A DNA stretch of 48,817 bases, taken from NCBI GenBank assembly GCA_030532685.1, contig JAUNKN010000013.1, forward strand, positions 1 through 48,817, written 5' to 3'. Origin of the DNA: Bacteroidales bacterium (GTDB taxonomy: Bacteria; Bacteroidota; Bacteroidia; Bacteroidales; Bacteroidaceae). The notes below the pieces were generated by a model that worked only from the letters and a program-made list of their open reading frames with translations, was not told the origin of the DNA and did no database searches. Below, one piece after another: positions 1 to 33,542 of this stretch. Both the position numbers and the translations under genes were made by a program. The first letter of the stretch is position 1; each line of letters opens with the position of its first letter.

Positions 1-70
1 CGTGGGAAGGAAAAAATCCTACGTGGGACGCAGGATTTTCTACGTGGGAAGAAGAAAATCCTGTGTGGGG
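1..70. repeat. 21-bp repeat cluster, copy 1 (cut by window edge)
   Basis: Three head-to-tail units of 21 bp are visible (1-20 incomplete, 21-41, 42-62) plus a decayed piece to about 70. Each starts with (A)CGTGGGA and ends with TCCT or TTCT. The first 41 bases, reverse-complemented, match 24857-24897 at 38 of 41 positions by eye, so this is an inverted copy of the cluster near 24.9 kb. Other copies are at 7216-7266 and 33204-33275. No coding role is seen here. I do not recognise the family by name. Confidence 0.9.
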
Positions 71-368
71 AGTTGAAAAATGAGAGCTCGAAAGGCGGCT
101 CTCTGGAGGGCAATAAAACACTCGAGAAGAGGAGCAATTTCGACTTGTTGCTCAAGGGGAAAGGACAGGGAGGGCAACTGGGGAGAAGAGGAGGGAGGCC
201 TGTTTGGATATTTCTGTGCTTCTGCTACAGTTTTTGCACTTTTACGCCTCAAATAGTGTGCCGAAAGCTCAGGAAACGAGGACGTTTGGTTTATTTTAGG
301 ATTAAGCGAAAAATCACTCAGTATTTTTTTGTACATTTGCCGAGAATACTCATTTTCTATTCTGATAT
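71..368. other. Non-coding region before rlmN
   Basis: Apart from the repeat cluster at 1-70 and the rlmN promoter box at 332-339, no gene is supported. Short open frames exist on both strands, but they overlap the repeats or the promoter and have no recognisable product. The stretch 110-200 is purine-rich, and a small hairpin (GAGCAA/TTGCTC) lies near 134-155. Confidence 0.6.
332..339 (+). promoter_or_regulatory. Bacteroidetes -7 box upstream of rlmN
   Basis: TACATTTG matches the Bacteroidetes primary sigma -7 consensus TAnnTTTG exactly and sits 29 bases before the rlmN ATG. No clear TTG at -33 is seen. Confidence 0.55.
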
Positions 369-5356: not shown

Positions 5357-7051
5357 ATGGCAACAGTAGACGATAAAAAAATCATTTTCTCGATGGTGGG
5401 GCTCACCAAGACCATCAAGCAAAGCAACAAAACGATACTCAAGGATATTTATCTGAGCTTTTTCTATGGCGCTAAGATTGGCATCATCGGTTTGAACGGT
5501 TCGGGTAAATCCACGCTGATGAAAATCATCGCAGGGCTCGACAACGATTATCAAGGCGAAGTCGTGTTCTCTCCTGGTTACTCTGTGGGCTATCTGCCTC
5601 AGGAACCCCATTTGGACGACGACAAAACAGTACGCCAAGTTGTAGAGGAAGGAGTGCAGCATGTGGTAGATGCACTGGCCGAGTATGAGGAAATCAACCA
5701 AAAATTTGGTTTGCCGGAATACTATGAGGATGCTGATAAAATGAATGAGCTCTTCGCTCGTCAAGGCGAGTTGCAAGATATCATTGATGCTACCGACGCC
5801 TGGAATCTCGACAGTCGTCTGGATCGCGCGATGGCTGCTCTCAACTGTCCACCAGCCGATCAGAAATGCGAATTTCTTTCAGGAGGTGAGCGCCGTCGTG
5901 TTGCTCTTTGCCGTTTGCTGCTGCAAAAACCAGATGTTCTACTCCTTGACGAACCCACTAACCACCTCGATGCCGAGAGTATAGACTGGCTTGAGCAGCA
6001 TCTCAACCAATACGAAGGCACAGTGATAGCCGTGACCCACGACCGTTATTTCTTGGACGATGTTGCGGGCTGGATTCTCGAACTCGACCGTGGCGAGGGA
6101 ATTCCTTGGAAGGGCAACTACACCTCTTGGCTCGAACAGAAGTCGAAGCGCATGGAGCAGGAGGAAAAAACGGCTTCCAAGCGTCGCAAAACTTTGGAGC
6201 GTGAGTTGGAATGGGTGCGCATGGCTCCAAAAGCTCGACAAGCCAAAGGAAAGGCTCGTTTGAACAATTATGACCGACTGCTTAACGAAGACCAGCGTGA
6301 GAAGGAACAGCATTTGGAAATCTATATTCCCAATGGTCCTCGCCTTGGCAACAAAGTTATCGAAGCCATCAACGTCAAGAAAGCCTTTGGGGAAAAGACA
6401 CTTTTCAATGATCTGAACTTCATGCTCCCTCCCAACGGCATCATCGGTGTCATTGGACCCAATGGAGCTGGAAAAACCACGCTTTTCCGGATGATTATGG
6501 AGCTCGAAAAGGCCGATGCAGGCACCTTTGAAGTGGGCGAAACAGTGAAGCTCAGTTACGTAGACCAGCAACATAAGGATATCGACCCCAACAAGAGTGT
6601 TTATGAAGTTGTCTCGCAAGGTAATGAGTTGATGCGCATGGGCGGGCGCGACATCAATGCCCGTGCCTACCTTTCTCGTTTCAATTTCTCGGGCAGCGAC
6701 CAAGAAAAAAAGTGTGGCGTACTCTCTGGCGGAGAACGTAATCGTTTGCACTTGGCGCTTGCGCTGAAGCAGGAGGGCAATGTCCTGTTGCTCGACGAAC
6801 CTACCAACGATATCGACGTTAATACCTTGCGCGCTTTGGAAGAAGGTTTGGAGGCTTTTGCAGGCTGTGCCGTCGTTATTTCGCACGACCGTTGGTTCTT
6901 GGACCGCATCTGTACTCACATTCTCGCTTTCGAGGGCGATGGCAATGTCTTCTACTTCGAGGGCTCTTATTCCGACTATGAGGTGAACAAGGCGAAGCGT
7001 TTGGGCACAGAAGAACCCAAGCGCATCCGTTACCGCAAGCTCGAAGAATAA
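5357..7051 (+). CDS. ettA: Energy-dependent translational throttle protein EttA (ABC-F ATPase)
   Basis: Cytoplasmic ABC-F protein that binds the ribosomal E site and gates the first elongation steps according to ATP/ADP. 564 residues with two ATPase cassettes: P-loop GLNGSGKST at 45-53, signature LSGGE at 174-178 and Walker B LLDEPTNHLD at about 196-205; then P-loop GPNGAGKTT at 367-375, LSGGERN at about 456-462 and LLLDEPTNDID around D480/E481. The PTNDID sequence and the following ALEEGLEAFAG resemble EttA more than other ABC-F subfamilies (Uup, ABCF2 or antibiotic-resistance types). No transmembrane segments are present. A strong terminator follows 30 bp after the stop. Confidence 0.93.
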   Translation: MATVDDKKIIFSMVGLTKTIKQSNKTILKDIYLSFFYGAKIGIIGLNGSGKSTLMKIIAGLDNDYQGEVVFSPGYSVGYLPQEPHLDDDKTVRQVVEEGVQHVVDALAEYEEINQKFGLPEYYEDADKMNELFARQGELQDIIDATDAWNLDSRLDRAMAALNCPPADQKCEFLSGGERRRVALCRLLLQKPDVLLLDEPTNHLDAESIDWLEQHLNQYEGTVIAVTHDRYFLDDVAGWILELDRGEGIPWKGNYTSWLEQKSKRMEQEEKTASKRRKTLERELEWVRMAPKARQAKGKARLNNYDRLLNEDQREKEQHLEIYIPNGPRLGNKVIEAINVKKAFGEKTLFNDLNFMLPPNGIIGVIGPNGAGKTTLFRMIMELEKADAGTFEVGETVKLSYVDQQHKDIDPNKSVYEVVSQGNELMRMGGRDINARAYLSRFNFSGSDQEKKCGVLSGGERNRLHLALALKQEGNVLLLDEPTNDIDVNTLRALEEGLEAFAGCAVVISHDRWFLDRICTHILAFEGDGNVFYFEGSYSDYEVNKAKRLGTEEPKRIRYRKLEE

Positions 7052-7135: not shown

Positions 7136-7215
7136 GTTGAGCTATTCATAGAACATGTTTTTTTGTTAAGAGGGATTGCTTGCTGCCTGTTGGAAGAAAT
7201 CCTCCAAATCGTGGT

Positions 7216-7266
7216 GCGTAATTTTTCTTCCCACGTAGGATTTTTTTCTTCCCACGTAGAATTTTC
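7216..7266. repeat. 21-bp repeat cluster, copy 2
   Basis: Units at 7216-7236 and 7237-7257 both end in CTTCCCACGT, and a third truncated unit (AGAATTTTC) ends near 7266. Relative to copy 1 the units are on the opposite strand. The cluster is about 80 bp past the ettA terminator and about 115 bp before the hpt promoter box, so it disrupts neither gene. Confidence 0.88.
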
Positions 7267-7323
7267 TAAATCGGACCTTTATTTTTCCGTTTTTGAGCCC
7301 GAAACTTTTTTCTCGTAGCATTT

Positions 7324-7407: not shown

Positions 7408-7947
7408 ATGAACCTCGTAACGATCAACGACCGCCAATTTACCATTTCTATCACTGCCGAACAGATTCAGCAACGTGTAGCCGAGGTTGCTGCACAGATA
7501 GATAAGGACTTGGCGGGCAAGAATCCCCTGTTTCTTGCCGTACTCAATGGCTCTTTTGTTTTCGCAGCCGACTTGATGCGTGGCATCACAACGCCAAGCG
7601 AAATCTCCTTTGTGCGTTTGGCAAGCTATGAAGGCATGGGCACTACGGGCCATGTGAAAGAAGTGCTGGGGCTTACCGAGAATCTCGAAGGTCGCACCGT
7701 TGTGATCATTGAGGATATCATTGACTCGGGCTTTACGATGCAGAAACTCGTGGCCGACTTGCGCAAGCAGAATCCTGCGGCACTTCACTTGGCAGCTTTG
7801 CTCGTAAAACCTGGCAATATGCAAGTAGAGCTCGATATCGACTACACTTGCTTTTCCATTCCCAACGACTTTATCGTAGGTTATGGATTGGACTATGATG
7901 GCTATGGTCGAAATCTTCCAGCCATTTACACTGTGGTAAACAACTAA
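7408..7947 (+). CDS. hpt: Hypoxanthine phosphoribosyltransferase
   Basis: Purine salvage enzyme that joins hypoxanthine (and usually guanine) to PRPP to give IMP (GMP). 179 residues from the ATG at 7408. The PRPP-binding signature VVIIEDIIDSGFT is at 98-110, with acidic residues E102, D103 and D106. An in-frame TTG at 7378 is open, but it would place the start upstream of the likely -7 box, so ATG 7408 is chosen. adk follows after 21 bp, linking IMP formation with adenylate balance in one transcript. Confidence 0.93.
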   Translation: MNLVTINDRQFTISITAEQIQQRVAEVAAQIDKDLAGKNPLFLAVLNGSFVFAADLMRGITTPSEISFVRLASYEGMGTTGHVKEVLGLTENLEGRTVVIIEDIIDSGFTMQKLVADLRKQNPAALHLAALLVKPGNMQVELDIDYTCFSIPNDFIVGYGLDYDGYGRNLPAIYTVVNN

Positions 7948-14433: not shown

Positions 14434-15336
14434 TTACATCGCAGCGCCTTGCACACTGATGGCTTCATTACCTTTTGCTATCTTGGCAATCATACCTTGT
14501 AGAGCCTTTCCAGGTCCACATTCGATGAAGGTAGTCGCACCAGCAGCAATCATCGCTTCGACCTCCTTGGTCCACAAAACAGAGGCCGTGAGTTGAGCTA
14601 TTAGATTTGCCTTGATCTCTTCTGGAGCCGTGTGAGCTGCGCCATCTACGTTTTGATAAACGGGGCAACGAGGGGTATTGAAAGTCGTAGCTGCAATAGC
14701 GGCTTCCAATTCTTCCTTCGCAGGCTGCATAACAGGAGAGTGGAATGCTCCTCCAACGGGCAACACCAATGCGCGTTTAGCACCGGCTTCCTTGAGACGA
14801 GTTGCGGCTGTTTCTACAGCCTCGCGTTCGCCAGAAATAACGAGTTGTCCAGGACAGTTATAGTTGGCACAGATTACAACTTTACCTGTCTCTTCACTTA
14901 CTTGACGGCAAATGTCTTCAATCTGAGCATCTTCGAGTCCTATGACTGCTGCCATTGTTCCTGGACGAGCTTCGCAAGCTGCTTGCATAGCCAAAGCGCG
15001 TTTGGCTACAAGGCGCAAGCCATCTTCGAAGGAAAGCGCACCAGCCGCAGTAAGTGCAGAAAGTTCTCCCAAAGAGTGTCCTGCTACCATATCGGGCTGA
15101 AAATCAATTCCTAAACAGAGCGCACTAATCACACTGTGTAGGAACACTGCGGGTTGTGTCACTTTGGTTTGTTTCAACTCTTCATCGGTTCCCGAAAACA
15201 TAATATCGGTAATGCGAAAACCAAGTATCTCATTAGCTTTCTCGAAGAGTTCTTTGGCCACGGGGTGCTTGTCATAAAGCTCCTTTCCCATTCCTACAAA
15301 TTGTGCGCCTTGACCAGGGAATACATATGCTTTCAT
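14434..15336 (-). CDS. fabD: Malonyl-CoA:ACP transacylase FabD
   Basis: Transfers malonyl from CoA to acyl carrier protein, the entry step for fatty-acid elongation. 300 residues, typical for FabD. The catalytic serine is S88 in GHSLGE and the catalytic histidine is H199 in GGAFHSPVM; the malonyl-carboxylate-binding arginine is R113. N-terminal PGQGAQ (7-12) is the oxyanion loop. The gene has its own upstream region of 182 bp with a TATATTTG box on the - strand, and an 88-bp gap with a hairpin separates it from the GH13 gene. No other fab gene is nearby. Confidence 0.96.
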   Translation of the reverse strand: MKAYVFPGQGAQFVGMGKELYDKHPVAKELFEKANEILGFRITDIMFSGTDEELKQTKVTQPAVFLHSVISALCLGIDFQPDMVAGHSLGELSALTAAGALSFEDGLRLVAKRALAMQAACEARPGTMAAVIGLEDAQIEDICRQVSEETGKVVICANYNCPGQLVISGEREAVETAATRLKEAGAKRALVLPVGGAFHSPVMQPAKEELEAAIAATTFNTPRCPVYQNVDGAAHTAPEEIKANLIAQLTASVLWTKEVEAMIAAGATTFIECGPGKALQGMIAKIAKGNEAISVQGAAM

Positions 15337-23934: not shown

Positions 23935-24642
23935 TTAATCTTCGTCTTCTTCGGTGCTATAATCCGTTTGGATAAACTCTTGACTGGCTTCGCGCAATGT
24001 TCCTTCGTGACAGCGATACACGACGCCAGGATAGTTGCGAAGGTAGCTCAGATTGTGAGTCACCATGACTACGGCCGTGCCTTGATCGGTGAGGGAACGG
24101 AGCAGTTGCATGATGCGATCGCTGGTTTCGTGGTCCAAATTGCCAGTGGGCTCGTCGGCCAAAATAATTTGAGGACGATTGAGCAATGCACGTGCTATGG
24201 CAATGCGTTGCTGCTCGCCTCCAGAGAGCTCGTGAGGAAAACTAAATTTCTTGTCGAGCATTTCGACCTGTTCGAGGACCTCGTCGATGCGTTGTTGGCG
24301 CTCTTCTTTGTCCTTCCAGTCGGTGGCTCTCAGCACAAAATCGAGATTTTTCTCTACAGTCATGTGTGGGAGTAGGGCGAAGTCTTGGAACACCATGCCC
24401 ATTTGTCGACGTAAGGCGGGGATGTGCTTCGTACGCAGGCGTGTGAGGTCTTGCTCCAATACGATGGCTTTATCTCCCTCAAAGTATTGCTCGGCATAAA
24501 TCGTCTTGAGCAGCGAGCTCTTTCCGCTCCCTACACGGCCTATGATATAGACAAACTCACCCTGACTGAGCGTGAAGTACACTTTGCTAAGAATAGTACG
24601 CTCTTGGATGATGATATTGAGGTTTTGAAAATCGATGAGCAT
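23935..24642 (-). CDS. ftsE: FtsE-like ABC transporter ATP-binding protein
   Basis: 235-residue ATPase from ATG 24642 (MLIDFQNLNI). P-loop GRVGSGKSS at 35-43, signature LSGGEQQRIAIARALL, Walker B IILADEPTGNLD, and H-loop VMVTHN are all present. The length and the GNLD Walker B context fit FtsE, the partner of FtsX, which activates peptidoglycan hydrolases at the septum. No ftsX is adjacent, so the related lipoprotein-export ATPases (LolD/MacB type) remain possible. The C-terminus ends in the acidic TEEDED. It is the first gene of the long lysC-lysA-hemW group. Confidence 0.75.
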   Translation of the reverse strand: MLIDFQNLNIIIQERTILSKVYFTLSQGEFVYIIGRVGSGKSSLLKTIYAEQYFEGDKAIVLEQDLTRLRTKHIPALRRQMGMVFQDFALLPHMTVEKNLDFVLRATDWKDKEERQQRIDEVLEQVEMLDKKFSFPHELSGGEQQRIAIARALLNRPQIILADEPTGNLDHETSDRIMQLLRSLTDQGTAVVMVTHNLSYLRNYPGVVYRCHEGTLREASQEFIQTDYSTEEDED

Positions 24643-24761: not shown

Positions 24762-24824
24762 CCGTTTTCTCGTGAAATCTTCTGCTTTAAGCTTCGTTTT
24801 TATAGAGGAGACCATCGTTTTTCT

Positions 24825-24907
24825 ACGTGCGTTGCAAAAAATCCTACGTGGGAAGGAAAAAATCCTGCGTCCCACGTAGATTTTTTTCCTTCCCACGTAG
24901 GATTTCC
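24825..24907. repeat. 21-bp repeat cluster, copy 3, with long inverted repeat
   Basis: Two units in one direction (24825-24845 and 24846-24866) are followed by units in the opposite direction (24857-24877 partly overlapping, then 24878-24898, and a fragment to 24907). The arms 24843-24864 and 24879-24901 (CCTACGTGGGAAGG... and its complement) pair over 22 bp with a single extra T, around a 14-base loop. It lies in the non-coding gap between the ftsE promoter and the glyA terminator. Confidence 0.92.
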
Positions 24908-25186: not shown

Positions 25187-26461
25187 TTACCAAGCGAACA
25201 GCGGGTACTTCTCCATGAGTTGGTTCACGTGGCTGCGTACTTCTGCGATGACGTTTTCGTTTTCGTAATCGTTGAGCACACGCTCAATGAGTGCCGCAAT
25301 TTCTACGACGAGGTCTTCTTTGGCACCGCGACTTGTAATGGCTGCTGTTCCTAAACGAATACCAGAGGTTTGAAAAGCAGAACGTGAGTCGAAAGGCACC
25401 ATATTTTTGTTGACAGTGATGTCGGCAGCTACAAGGGCGTTTTCTGCTTGCTTACCCGTAAGATTGGGGTATTTTGAGCGGAGGTCTACGAGCATGGAGT
25501 GGTTGTCGGTACCTCCCGAAACGATGTCGAAACCACGCTTCACGAGTTCTTCGGCTAGGCGAGCTGCATTCTTCTGTACTTGCGAAGCCCATTGCTTAAA
25601 TTCTGGGGCCAGTGCTTCGCCAAATGCTACAGCTTTGGCGGCAATCACGTGCTCAAGAGGACCGCCCTGAATACCCGGGAATACGGCACTATTTAGGAGT
25701 TGACTCATCATCTTGACTTCTCCCTTAGGCGTAGTAAGCCCCCAAGGATTGGCAAAGTCTTTGCCCATCAAAATGATACCACCACGAGGGCCGCGGAGGG
25801 TCTTGTGAGTGGTGGAAGTCACGATATGAGCATATTTTACGGGGTTTTCAAGCAGTCCTGCAGCAATAAGTCCTGCGGGGTGAGCCATGTCGACCATGAA
25901 GATGGCTCCTACGGCATCGGCAATCTTGCGCATACGTGCATAGTCCCATTCGCGGGAGTATGCCGAACCACCTCCGATGATGAGTTTGGGCTTGTGTTCC
26001 AAGGCCAAACGCTCCATCTCTTCGTAGTCTACGCGACCAGTCTTCTTGTCGAGATTGTAGCCAATGGGGCGATAGAGGATGCCGGAAGTATTTACTAAGG
26101 AACCGTGAGAAAGGTGGCCGCCATGGTCAAGGTTGAGCCCCATAAAAGTGTCGCCAGCCTGCAAGCAAGCAAGGAAAACAGCGGCATTGGCTTGAGCACC
26201 CGAGTGGGGCTGTACGTTGGCATATTCTGCACCAAAAAGTTGGCAAGCTCGATCGATGGCGATTTGCTCTACTTTGTCTACCACTTGACAACCGCCATAG
26301 TAGCGTTTGCCAGGATAACCTTCGGCATATTTATTGGTAAGCACACTGCCCATAGCCTCCATGACTTGTTGAGAAACAAAGTTCTCGCTGGCAATGAGTT
26401 CGATACCGCGCATTTGGCGTTGCTTTTCGGCTTCTATTAAGGAAAAGATTTCTTGATCCAT
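25187..26461 (-). CDS. glyA: Serine hydroxymethyltransferase
   Basis: PLP enzyme that moves a one-carbon unit from serine to tetrahydrofolate, giving glycine and methylene-THF. 424 residues from ATG 26461 ([16 protein letters not shown]), the conserved N-terminus; an upstream in-frame ATG would enter the pyrI terminator. PLP lysine is K220 in [13 protein letters not shown], and MDMAHPAG (189-196) is the conserved active-site stretch. The C-terminal part holds [17 protein letters not shown]. It has a strong terminator downstream. Confidence 0.97.
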
Positions 26462-30676: not shown

Positions 30677-31090
30677 ATGCCTAAAATCACGTTTTTTCTT
30701 TCTCTCTTTCTTTTCCTAACAGCCTGCCAGCCCAGTGCAAAAGAGCAGAGTGAACGCAGACAGCAGGACGAAGCTGCTGCTCTTCCTTTGTTGGCTACGG
30801 CACGCGTTGCTTTGGCAAAAAAAGATTTCAAAACTGCCCGTATCACGATCAAAACACTTCGTGAGGAATATCCCTATGCCTTGAGTGCACGTGAAACGGC
30901 TATTGTAGTGATGGACAGTGTGGATCTTGTAGAAGCGCAGGAGCAACTAATGCGTCAGGATAGCCTTTTGCGCAACTGTGCGGGCTCCTGCAAATTGCGC
31001 CAGGCCAAATATGACGAACTTGTACAGCGTGTGAAATTTTATCAGCGCAAAATACGCCATGATCAACACCCCCCTCTCCCCCATGAGTGA
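30677..31090 (+). CDS. Small lipoprotein with coiled-coil character
   Basis: 137-residue protein not recognised by name. The signal peptide ends in lipobox FLTAC with C17 lipidated. The mature part is helical and charged (EQSERRQQDEAAALPLLATARVALAKKDFKTARITI...), with alternating basic and acidic residues typical of a coiled coil, and a central ARITIKTLREEYPYALSARE that looks like a tetratricopeptide-like helix pair. Its last codons overlap the helicase start (ATGAGTGA at 31083-31090), so the two are translationally coupled. Confidence 0.75.
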   Translation: MPKITFFLSLFLFLTACQPSAKEQSERRQQDEAAALPLLATARVALAKKDFKTARITIKTLREEYPYALSARETAIVVMDSVDLVEAQEQLMRQDSLLRNCAGSCKLRQAKYDELVQRVKFYQRKIRHDQHPPLPHE

Positions 31091-33542
31091 TGCTTTTGAA
31101 TCTCGCCCTGATAGCTTCTGGCAATCTTTACTCAACCCCAGCCAGTGGGAAGCCGTGCATGTGTGCGATCGACCGTTGCTGGTCATTGCCGGTGCAGGTT
31201 CGGGCAAGACGCGGGTGCTGACCTATAAAATTGCCTATCTGCTCGAACATGGTTATGCTCCGCATCAAATCATGGCGCTGACTTTTACCAATAAGGCCGC
31301 CCGGGAAATGAACGAACGTATCGGGCAAATCGTGGGGTTGGGTAAAGCTCGTGGTTTATGGAGCGGTACTTTTCACAGCCTTTTTGCTCGTTTGTTACGC
31401 CAAGAAGCCGAGGCTGTAGGGATGAAGCGCGATTTCACGATTTACGACACGGCCGATTCGCGCTCGCTCATCAAATCTATTGTGAAAGAAATGGGGCTGG
31501 ACGACAAAAACTACAAGGCCTCTCGTATTCATGGTCGTATATCGGAGGCTAAGAATGCACTGATACTTCCTCAGGAGTATGCGCAGCACGAAGGAACAAT
31601 TGCTCGAGATCGCCGTGACAATATCGGAGAAACTCATCGTATCTATGCCGTCTATTTTCAGCGTTGTCGTACGGCAAATGCCATGGATTTTGACGATTTG
31701 TTGCTTTATACCTACCTTCTCTTCTCTCATAACGAGGAGATACGTCGCCGATATGCCGAACGCTTTCGCTATGTCCTCGTCGATGAGTATCAAGACACGA
31801 ACCATGCCCAACATAGCATTGTGGCTTTGCTTACTCGAGAAAATCAGCGCATCTGTGTAGTAGGCGACGATGCTCAGAGCATTTATTCTTTTCGTGGAGC
31901 CAATATCGACAATATCCTTCAATTTACCAAGCAGTATGAAGGAGCAAAAGTCGTGAAGCTCGAACAGAACTACCGTTCTACACAAAACATCGTGGGAGCG
32001 GCCAATAGCATTATTGGGCACAATAAGGAGCAGATTGCCAAGGTGGTGTATAGTGAGAATGAGCAAGGCCAACGCATTCGGATTATGCCTGCCGCGAGCG
32101 ACAAAGAAGAGGCTGCCAAGGTCGTGGGAACGATAGCTCGCTTGCATCGCACAGAGCAAGTGTCTTATGGTGAGGTGGCTATTTTGTATCGTACCAATGC
32201 CCAGAGCCGTTCGTTTGAGGATGCTTTGCGTGAGCGCAATCTTCCTTATCGCATTTATGGAGGGCTTTCGTTCTATCAGCGCAAGGAAATCAAGGACATC
32301 ATTGCCTATATGCGCCTGCTGCACAACCTCGACGACGAAGAGGCCTTTAAGCGCATTGTCAATTATCCCGCCCGAGGCATAGGAGCGACCACGCTACAAA
32401 AGGTGTTCACGGCCTCGCGCGAGCATCAAGTCAGCCTTTGGGCTGTGGCAGAGCAGCCCTCGCTCTATGGGGTGAAAATCAACAAAGGCACGGAAGCGAA
32501 GCTCACCAATTTTTGTAATCTAATTCTCGAGCTGAGAGCCAAATCGCCCCTTATGGGAGCATTTAACCTGGCAGTCGACTTGCTCGACACGACAGGCATA
32601 CGAGCAGATCTCGAACAGGAGGAGGGGCCAGAAGGGAAGAGCAAAAGAGAAAACGTTGAGGAACTGTTGGGCTCCATACGAGCATTTGAACAAGAAGTTC
32701 TCGAAGAAACGGGACAGGCACAGCCCTCCCTGAGCGATTTCTTACAGCAATCTGCTCTGCAAACCGATGCCGATCAAAAAGACGATGGAGAGGCCAAAAT
32801 CACGCTCATGACCATTCATGCAGCCAAAGGTCTTGAGTTCGATGCTGTCTTTGTGACGGGGATGGAGGACAACCTTTTTCCTTCTACCCAAGCTCGCCTC
32901 TTTCCACGTGAAATGGAGGAAGAGCGACGCTTATTCTACGTGGCCGTCACGCGAGCCAAACGTTTTTGTCATCTTAGCTATGCCAAAACACGCTATCGTT
33001 ATGGCAATTTGGAATATGCCGAAGAGAGTCCTTTCGTTCGCGACATTGCCCACCATTATTTGGAGGAAGAAGAGATGGGAGGCGACACACTGATGCAGCA
33101 CCTTGCACCCTCTTTGCGCCGAGCATTGTCGGGATTGCCTGTTTCGTCTTCTTCTACTTCTGTTGGAGAGGAAGAGCACAAAGCAACGCGAGCAGGAATT
33201 TCTTCTTCCCACGTAGAAAATCCTACGTGGGAAGAAAAAAAATCTGCTTCCCACGTAGAAAATTCTGCTTCTCACGCGCGTTTTCGCCCCACAACTCTGC
33301 GCCCTTCAACTTCCCCTCAAAGCCCACTTTCAAAGGGTGTGCAAGTATCCTCTACCAGCCGCGAAATCCCCCCTATCCCACAGTTGGAAGTGGGAAGTGT
33401 TATTAGGCACGAGCGTTTCGGGCGAGGTGTGATTTTAGAATTGGAGGGAAGTGGCGACAATGCCAAAGCTGTGGTCAATTTTGAGCAGGTGGGTACGAAA
33501 AAACTCCTCTTGAAATTTGCCAAATTCACTTTGTTGGCATAG
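31083..33542 (+). CDS. UvrD/PcrA-type ATP-dependent DNA helicase
   Basis: 819-residue superfamily 1A helicase for repair and replication restart. Walker A AGAGSGKT is at 36-43; VDEYQDTN (motif II, D234-E235), GDDAQSIYSFRGA (motif III), TIHAAKGLEFDAVFVTG (motif V) and FYVAVTRAK (motif VI) are intact. The last 50 residues (VGSVIRHERFGRG...) resemble the Tudor-like RNA-polymerase-binding domain of PcrA. Residues 708 to about 731, between core and this domain, are encoded by the 21-bp repeat (SSHVENP, TWEEKKS, ASHVENS). An alternative start at 31059 would add 8 residues; ATG 31083 gives an 8-bp overlap with the upstream lipoprotein. Confidence 0.93.
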   Translation: MSDAFESRPDSFWQSLLNPSQWEAVHVCDRPLLVIAGAGSGKTRVLTYKIAYLLEHGYAPHQIMALTFTNKAAREMNERIGQIVGLGKARGLWSGTFHSLFARLLRQEAEAVGMKRDFTIYDTADSRSLIKSIVKEMGLDDKNYKASRIHGRISEAKNALILPQEYAQHEGTIARDRRDNIGETHRIYAVYFQRCRTANAMDFDDLLLYTYLLFSHNEEIRRRYAERFRYVLVDEYQDTNHAQHSIVALLTRENQRICVVGDDAQSIYSFRGANIDNILQFTKQYEGAKVVKLEQNYRSTQNIVGAANSIIGHNKEQIAKVVYSENEQGQRIRIMPAASDKEEAAKVVGTIARLHRTEQVSYGEVAILYRTNAQSRSFEDALRERNLPYRIYGGLSFYQRKEIKDIIAYMRLLHNLDDEEAFKRIVNYPARGIGATTLQKVFTASREHQVSLWAVAEQPSLYGVKINKGTEAKLTNFCNLILELRAKSPLMGAFNLAVDLLDTTGIRADLEQEEGPEGKSKRENVEELLGSIRAFEQEVLEETGQAQPSLSDFLQQSALQTDADQKDDGEAKITLMTIHAAKGLEFDAVFVTGMEDNLFPSTQARLFPREMEEERRLFYVAVTRAKRFCHLSYAKTRYRYGNLEYAEESPFVRDIAHHYLEEEEMGGDTLMQHLAPSLRRALSGLPVSSSSTSVGEEEHKATRAGISSSHVENPTWEEKKSASHVENSASHARFRPTTLRPSTSPQSPLSKGVQVSSTSREIPPIPQLEVGSVIRHERFGRGVILELEGSGDNAKAVVNFEQVGTKKLLLKFAKFTLLA
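33204..33275. repeat. 21-bp repeat cluster, copy 4, inside the uvrD/pcrA gene
   Basis: Three 21-bp units at 33204-33224, 33225-33245 and 33246-33266, with a partial fourth. The first two are in opposite directions, giving a 14-bp perfect inverted repeat (33203-33216 and 33223-33236, 6-base loop). Each unit begins on a codon boundary, so the frame is kept and three 7-residue blocks are added. This copy is in coding sequence; the other three are not. Confidence 0.93.

What the first reader, a model, noticed from the sequence alone, without database searches (positions are those of the whole stretch)
24825..24907. Dispersed 21-bp repeat family with a 22-bp inverted arrangement
Units of exactly 21 bp containing CTACGTGGGAAG occur at four places in under 50 kb (1-70, 7216-7266, 24825-24907, 33204-33275), in tandem and in both directions. 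Here they form a 22-bp stem with one bulge around a 14-base loop. The spread, fixed length and tandem form suggest an active or recently active small repeat (REP- or MITE-like), a protein-binding array or a recombination target. I do not recognise the family by name.
Basis: partly seen in the sequence, partly recalled or inferred. Interest (0 to 1): 0.8.

Follow-up and report, generated by a model that had tools for sequence, protein, structure and literature searches.

The report
Evenly spaced 21-bp palindrome arrays
This bacterium's genome carries a hundred or so short DNA arrays built from 21-base near-palindromic units; relatives have arrays of the same design with different spelling, and in the three species tested the arrays tend to keep about five kilobases apart, which suggests a mobile or chromosome-organising repeat whose mechanism is still unknown.

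Summary
CTACGTGGGAAG occurs 126 times in the 1.87-Mb genome (reversed control 0); two sister words have 76 and 45 copies. Units sit on a 21-bp lattice: a 15-bp quasi-palindromic core (CTAC-N7-GTAG or a half-changed form) plus a 6-bp A/T-rich linker, in either orientation within one frame, up to about 6 per array, mostly intergenic. One window array lies in frame in a PcrA/UvrD-like helicase linker.

(1) Some relatives in the genus (probably Bacteroidetes) use the same lattice with other words: G114 CTCWGAGGTAG (206 vs control 1), G142 TAACGAGTAG (130 vs 11). (2) Arrays repel: gaps under 5 kb were 0 of 55 here (17.0 expected; 2 of 60 when small contigs are included), 1 of 32 in G114 (8.0) and 3 of 37 in G142 (10.1). 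An E. coli REP control shows none (6 of 18 vs 5.2).

No RAYT was found in this genome, and no shared leader/tail or clear target duplication. Best reading: protein-binding arrays that spread by copying and are excluded near existing copies. Mobiliser and binder are unidentified; a selected chromosome-organising role is a serious rival.

The parts
1..78 (+). Array 1, cut by the contig start: partial unit, then units from 16, 37 and 58 (the last degenerate)
   Evidence: its first 55 bases recur exactly at the start of contig C10 (L041) and the end of C12 (L045)
7200..7283 (-). Array 2: two good units (7221-7262) facing minus, with a weak unit on each side; between an EttA-like gene (5357-7051) and a hypoxanthine phosphoribosyltransferase-like gene (7408-7947), both +
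24820..24903 (.). Array 3 (the finding): units from 24820 (degenerate), 24841 (+), 24862 (-), 24883 (-); can fold into one long hairpin; between an FtsE-like ABC ATPase (23935-24642) and a serine hydroxymethyltransferase (25187-26461), both -
33178..33282 (.). Array 4 inside a gene: units from 33199 (-), 33220 (+), 33241 (-), weak units at each side; translated in frame within the variable linker of the helicase
31059..33542 (+). PcrA/UvrD-like helicase gene holding array 4; UvrD domains at residues 25-643 and tudor domain at 778-821, the array lies between them
   Evidence: NCBIfam pcrA score 759.6 is below its curated cut-off 911.2

Best explanation
The feature is one member of a dispersed family of DNA arrays. 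Shown: each array is a row of 15-bp quasi-palindromic cores separated by 6-bp A/T-rich linkers, so that cores repeat every 21 bp, about two turns of B-DNA; core words differ between species while the lattice is kept in several of them; neighbouring arrays are rarely closer than about 5 kb. Inferred: each core is a dimer-type binding site for a DNA-binding protein, and the 21-bp step puts bound dimers on one face of the helix. Inferred: whole arrays or runs of units are copied to new, mostly intergenic places, which explains species-wide words and unconserved positions. Inferred: new copies are blocked near existing ones, in the manner of cis-immunity of Mu, Tn7 or Tn3, because a protein loaded at an array clears or guards the adjacent few kilobases. 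The inverted repeats around each 7-bp core centre would let centres flip in place, which would explain mixed orientation inside one frame. The enzyme that copies and the protein that binds were not found.
For: 126, 76 and 45 copies of three words with control 0. The first word is at background in 150 other genomes of the family, 0-2 copies each, and the third in 57 others of the genus, 0-1 each. Lattice frame kept for both orientations in 91 of 95 clusters. Same lattice, other words, in relatives; G114 206 vs 1, G142 130 vs 11. Gaps under 5 kb: 0 of 55 vs 17.0 expected, 0 of 5000 simulations as few; 0 of 14 vs 4.1-4.3 when sites are confined to intergenic regions, P 0.003-0.004; G114 1 of 32 vs 8.0, P 0.00015; G142 3 of 37 vs 10.1, P 0.001; E. 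coli REP control 6 of 18 vs 5.2. Large gaps are tolerated (to 105 kb in G114), which fits local exclusion better than a need for coverage. Array pairs sharing 36 bp: 70 vs 12.0 for shuffled units; 42 bp: 15 vs 1.3. In-gene array seen in this species only: 0 of 29 relatives have a lattice inside the scanned end of the helicase gene. Mu cis-immunity is strongest around 5 kb (PMC7350765, passages).
Against: No transposase or binder was identified. No shared leader/tail (5 similar flank pairs among 160 flanks) and at most a slight excess of shared flank words (29 of 81 arrays with 6 bases or more vs 22.9 expected). Arrays fade into degenerate in-frame units (17-19% of the adjacent units vs 0-1% off frame), unlike a clean insertion. 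Short gaps exist: on C1-C46 2 of 60 are under 5 kb (902 bp, where one side is a lone in-gene word, and 4412 bp); G114 has a 513-bp pair, G142 659- and 860-bp pairs. In other species of the genus arrays with unlike words lie 3.9-5.0 kb apart in the 20-kb samples (L259, L253). The shared-segment test is inflated because shuffling units breaks linker junctions.
Confidence: 0.4

Rival explanations
1. The arrays are chromosome-organising sites kept by selection: a nucleoid or domain-boundary protein binds the two-turn lattice, and near-even placement every 8-12 kb is itself the function, as proposed for gyrase-binding BIMEs or domain boundaries.
For: Even spacing in three species; lattice geometry kept while words change; the 4 weak, decayed arrays found in about 304 kb fall in the larger gaps, each at least 7.7 kb from its neighbours.
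Against: Coverage is not complete: gaps of 26-34 kb here, 66 and 105 kb in G114. Word replacement would need a co-evolving binder. Array neighbourhoods are not conserved (3 of 11 vs 33 of 115; low power).
Confidence: 0.25
2. Ordinary REP/BIME-type repeats spread by a RAYT or other HUH enzyme that is lost or lies in the missing 15% of this genome.
For: High-copy intergenic palindromes, alternating orientation, species-specific words, and an in-gene copy in a UvrD-type helicase, which Di Nocera et al. also report for REPs (PMC3733652, sections read). Y1_Tnp occurs in 28 of 58 genus genomes, among them lattice-bearing G114, G158, G168, G179.
Against: No Y1_Tnp match in this genome nor in lattice-bearing G142, G155 and G172. 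No unpaired GTAG or CGTC tag: GTAG pairs with CTAC in the core. REPs in 300 kb of E. coli show no 5-kb exclusion (small sample, words recalled).
Confidence: 0.2
3. RNA-level or promoter elements: hairpins that end or stabilise transcripts, or bidirectional promoters as in BrickBuilt.
For: Very stable predicted hairpin in array 3; mostly intergenic, tens to hundreds of bases from flanking genes.
Against: Not concentrated between convergent genes: of 74 clusters with two flanking genes 46 are co-directional, 20 divergent, 8 convergent, roughly the intergenic base share. Many arrays are direct tandems. It does not explain 5-kb exclusion. My gene calls are crude.
Confidence: 0.1
4. Assembly or binning artefact: contigs break at arrays and short pieces between close arrays were lost.
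For: Several contig ends lie in arrays, e.g. C3, C10, C11, C12, C13, C36, C37, C38, C41 and C49; the two shortest contigs that I met are 5.7-5.8 kb.
Against: The gaps tested are within contigs. G114, in about 30 contigs and 97% complete, with tested contigs of 167-530 kb, shows the same exclusion. The arrays are unit lattices found inside contigs in several genomes.
Confidence: 0.05

Closest known systems
REP / BIME repeats, GTAG and CGTC super-families (Di Nocera et al. 2013, PMC3733652; parts read)
   Same: Short intergenic palindromes in high copy, species-specific, clustered in mixed orientation, sometimes in frame inside DNA-repair helicase genes.
   Different: Continuous 21-bp lattice with 6-bp linkers; no unpaired terminal tag; no RAYT here; lattice conserved while words change; neighbour exclusion around 5 kb.
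BrickBuilt minisatellite-MITE of Porphyromonas gingivalis (Klein et al. 2015, PMC4596501; abstract, outline and passages seen)
   Same: Tandem units of about two helical turns (23 nt), no spacers, intergenic, dispersed, species-restricted, cause assembly gaps.
   Different: BrickBuilt has leader and tail with IS5-type terminal inverted repeats, direct repeats, 19 copies in one strain; here no shared leader or tail, mixed orientation, over 100 arrays.
Rickettsia palindromic elements (RPE; described in PMC3733652 as read)
   Same: In-frame insertion in protein genes.
   Different: RPEs are not a 21-bp lattice; here coding copies are the exception (3 arrays seen).
Ends of Mu/Tn7-type transposons with cis-immunity (PMC7350765, passages)
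   Same: Exclusion of new copies strongest around 5 kb; transposase sites of about 22 bp in rows (the latter recalled).
   Different: No defined ends, no clear target duplication, no cargo; the transposase was not searched for.

Membership tests
REP (GTAG/CGTC super-families) | High-copy, mainly intergenic short palindromes | tested here: met
   126/76/45 copies; 74 of 95 clusters intergenic between two called genes, 17 at a contig or stretch end, 4 in genes
REP (GTAG/CGTC super-families) | Unpaired GTAG or CGTC tag at one end of the hairpin | tested here: not met
   GTAG stands opposite CTAC at the two ends of the 15-bp core; the commonest cores have CTAC at one end and GAAA/GAAG-type ends at the other
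REP (RAYT-driven) | RAYT/Y1_Tnp gene, flanked by the repeat | tested here: not met
   0 matches in G000 (85.5% complete); 28 of 58 genus genomes, not tracking arrays. Flanks of the Y1_Tnp genes of relatives were not examined
MITE / BrickBuilt | Shared terminal inverted repeats or leader/tail | tested here: not met
   5 similar pairs among 160 150-bp flanks of 80 arrays
MITE | Target site duplication | tested here: inconclusive
   Shared flank words of 6 or more bases in 29 of 81 vs 22.9 expected
CRISPR | Identical repeats with unique spacers of constant length | tested here: not met
   Both cores and linkers recur among arrays
Elements with cis-immunity (Mu/Tn7/Tn3 type) | Depletion of second copies within several kb | tested here: met
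   control. It shows depletion, not its cause
Elements with cis-immunity (Mu/Tn7/Tn3 type) | Cognate DDE transposase (and MuB/TnsC-type ATPase) | not tested
Chromosome-organising sites (matS, parS, gyrase/BIME type) | A protein bound at the arrays in the cell | not testable with these tools
   needs ChIP or pull-down

The most novel reading that the evidence does not exclude
A genus-wide, self-spacing chromosomal repeat system: two-turn (21/22-bp) palindrome lattices whose geometry is conserved while each species rewrites and homogenises the core word, presumably with a co-evolving binder, and whose copies are laid out along the chromosome by a short-range exclusion rule.
Probability: 0.3. Interest if true: 0.85.

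Novelty: new variant of a known kind. Interest (0 to 1): 0.62.

Why it matters
Known dispersed bacterial palindromes (REP, BIME, MITE) are not, in the papers that I found, reported to avoid one another or to keep one helical lattice while their words change. If exclusion holds in closed genomes, these arrays offer a natural record of target immunity or of selected chromosome spacing, and comparing close strains would tell the two apart. The changing words also give a way to look for a fast-evolving DNA-binding partner.

Tried and rejected
Relatives outside the genus: the scan of named genomes for the tandem form gave 2 stretches, L100 (uncultured Bacteroidetes MAG) and L101 (Methylococcaceae MAG). 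Both are 21-bp tandem arrays; L100's word occurs 8 times at one place in a 3.8-Mb genome, so I treat them as unrelated. About 2 chance hits were expected by my own estimate. The tool may leave out records of the window's own genome.

Other genera of the family: 22-bp palindromic arrays seen in G005 and G010 are not dispersed families by the one word tested (10 vs control 5; 3 vs 4). The lag profile of 20 stretches from outside the genus is much flatter.

Spelled lattice CTAC-N7-GTAG-N6-CTAC-N7-GTAG in the genus: 11 of 58 genomes match with one mismatch allowed, but G151 (1 vs control 1), G156 (1 vs 8), G172 (1 vs 1) and G180 (2 vs 1) are at or near control level, G166 (1 vs 0) is a single hit; G114 is 10 vs 5. 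47 of 58 have none, so this spelling is a minority feature of the genus.

Conserved positions between species: no enrichment. RAYT: rejected for this genome. Shared flanks: none beyond a few. CRISPR: rejected by anatomy. Coding-period explanation of 21 (7 codons): 22-bp arrays in relatives and intergenic location speak against it.

Limits: one search used 19 of 54 contigs (1.22 Mb of 1.87 Mb); C47 and C50 were left out because the listing was cut at 100 of 126 places or the contig was held in part, and small contigs were left out; the small ones are counted. G114 spacing used contigs C1, C3 and C4 only, G142 16 contigs, for 8 of which I assumed a length. G142's 10-base word has 11 control hits, so some of its sites are chance. 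The phylum is inferred from one weak SusC/RagA hit below cut-off.

Full report
Observation. In the whole genome G000 (1,867,492 bases, 54 contigs, 85.5% complete) the 12-mer has 126 exact copies, control 0. Two sister words, CTACGTGGGACG and CTACGTGCGTCG, have 76 and 45 copies, both with control 0. The first word is at background, 0-2 copies, in the 150 other genomes of the family sampled; the third at 0-1 in the 57 other genomes of the genus.

Anatomy. I read 95 word clusters in about 0.65 Mb of this genome. Cores of 15 bp alternate with 6-bp A/T-rich linkers (AAAATC, GATTTT, AAAAAA and the like), giving a 21-bp step. Plus and minus units share one frame: the distances of 24 and 18 bp between opposite cores add up to 42 bp. 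Of the 95 clusters 4 are off phase. Main cores are CTACGTGGGAAGAAA, CTACGTGGGACGCAG and CTACGACGCACGTAG with variants. Other core words also sit on the lattice in some arrays, for example CGCGCTGCGAGCTAG. Array 3 of the window can form a long hairpin.

Context. By a simple gene caller of my own, 46 of 95 clusters lie between co-directional genes, 20 between divergent, 8 between convergent genes, 17 at a contig or stretch end and 4 in genes. On five contigs with 19 clusters the classes follow the intergenic base share. Three of the four in-gene clusters are lattice arrays read in frame: the PcrA/UvrD-like helicase of the window, a DUF5074-type protein (L037) and a 209-aa open frame without a Pfam match (L137); the fourth (L065) is a lone word. 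In 29 relatives' helicase loci the scanned gene end holds no such lattice, though two have a 22-bp array just downstream.

Relatives. In 358 kb from G142, G155 and G114 self-similarity at lag 21 was far above other lags. Arrays in G142, G114, G179, G168, G158 and G172 have CTA...TAG cores and A/T-rich linkers in the same 15+6 frame but other words; these were found with a CTAC/GTAG pattern, so that those ends are conserved is partly by selection, whereas the lag-21 hits were not so selected. In 400 kb from 20 further genus species, outside long ORFs, lags 21, 22, 42 and 44 gave 10, 10, 9 and 7 places and the other lags from 10 to 60 gave 0-3. In 20 stretches from outside the genus the profile was flat (lags 21-23: 5, 6, 5; lag 14: 7; lag 18: 5). 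G114's word has 206 copies (control 1) and G142's 130 (control 11).

Spacing. On 19 contigs of this genome (74 sites, 55 gaps) the shortest gap is 5336 bp; 17.0 gaps under 5 kb are expected for uniform placement and 0 of 5000 simulations had so few. Restricting sites to intergenic regions on five contigs gives 0 of 14 vs 4.1-4.3, P 0.003-0.004. Counting contigs C1-C46 with small ones included, 2 of 60 gaps are under 5 kb: 902 bp, with a lone in-gene word, and 4412 bp. G114: 1 of 32 vs 8.0, P 0.00015. G142: 3 of 37 vs 10.1, P 0.001. E. coli K-12 REPs in 300 kb: 6 of 18 vs 5.2. A weight-matrix scan of about 304 kb of this genome found 4 further weak arrays, each at least 7.7 kb from the next.

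How it may have spread. Arrays share multi-unit segments more often than shuffled units do (36 bp: 70 pairs vs 12.0; 42 bp: 15 vs 1.3), with the caveat that shuffling breaks linker junctions. Positions are not conserved against relatives (few cases). Flanks show no common leader or tail, no clear duplication, and fading in-frame units. No Y1_Tnp was found here.

Reading. The step of two helical turns and the dyad cores suggest rows of dimer sites on one face of DNA (inference). The lower limit on spacing without an upper limit suggests local exclusion of new copies more than a need for coverage; Mu cis-immunity has a similar reach (PMC7350765, passages). I commit to mobile protein-binding arrays with short-range exclusion at 0.4; organiser sites 0.25; RAYT-type REPs 0.2; RNA or promoter elements 0.1; artefact 0.05.

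Known work. Di Nocera et al. (PMC3733652: opening part, sections 6 and 15, first part of the Discussion) describe REPs with unpaired GTAG/CGTC tags, RAYT links and intragenic copies including UvrD/REP helicases. Klein et al. (PMC4596501: abstract, outline, passages) describe BrickBuilt. PMC12306157, PMC8049555 and PMC5771137 were seen in passages. Eight searches of the open library listed no paper whose title or shown abstract describes a 21-bp palindrome lattice with neighbour exclusion; subscription papers are mostly not held.

Noticed in passing
window 1-55, L041 1-55, end of L045: The window's first 55 bases recur exactly at the start of contig C10 and the end of C12: the contigs break inside near-identical arrays.
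   Followed up: partly
L037 about 2498-2560; L137 about 15047-15110: Arrays inside other open reading frames, read as 7-residue repeats (e.g. KNLRGKE, NFLRGKE).
   Followed up: partly
L172-L176 (G114): Another dispersed repeat, around CTTAAATTTGAGTACCTTTGCAGT, at 10 places in 96 kb.
   Followed up: no
L160-L165 and L200-L203 (G142); L212, L216, L219, L220 (G114): A CGCGCGTRCGCGCG-type word near several arrays, and a CACTGCCTTCGCAAAA / AAGGCAAGTGAAGGCA repeat in G142.
   Followed up: no
L100 5916-6096: An uncultured Bacteroidetes MAG has one 21-bp tandem array of 8 units whose core changes only by transitions (CTAYRYRYRTAG).
   Followed up: partly
L081, L134 and L149, right flanks of arrays: About 50-85 bp of similar sequence beside different arrays, perhaps another small repeat.
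   Followed up: no
L104 about 4016; L110 about 4024: 22-bp repeats just downstream of the helicase gene in two relatives (G114, G168).
   Followed up: no
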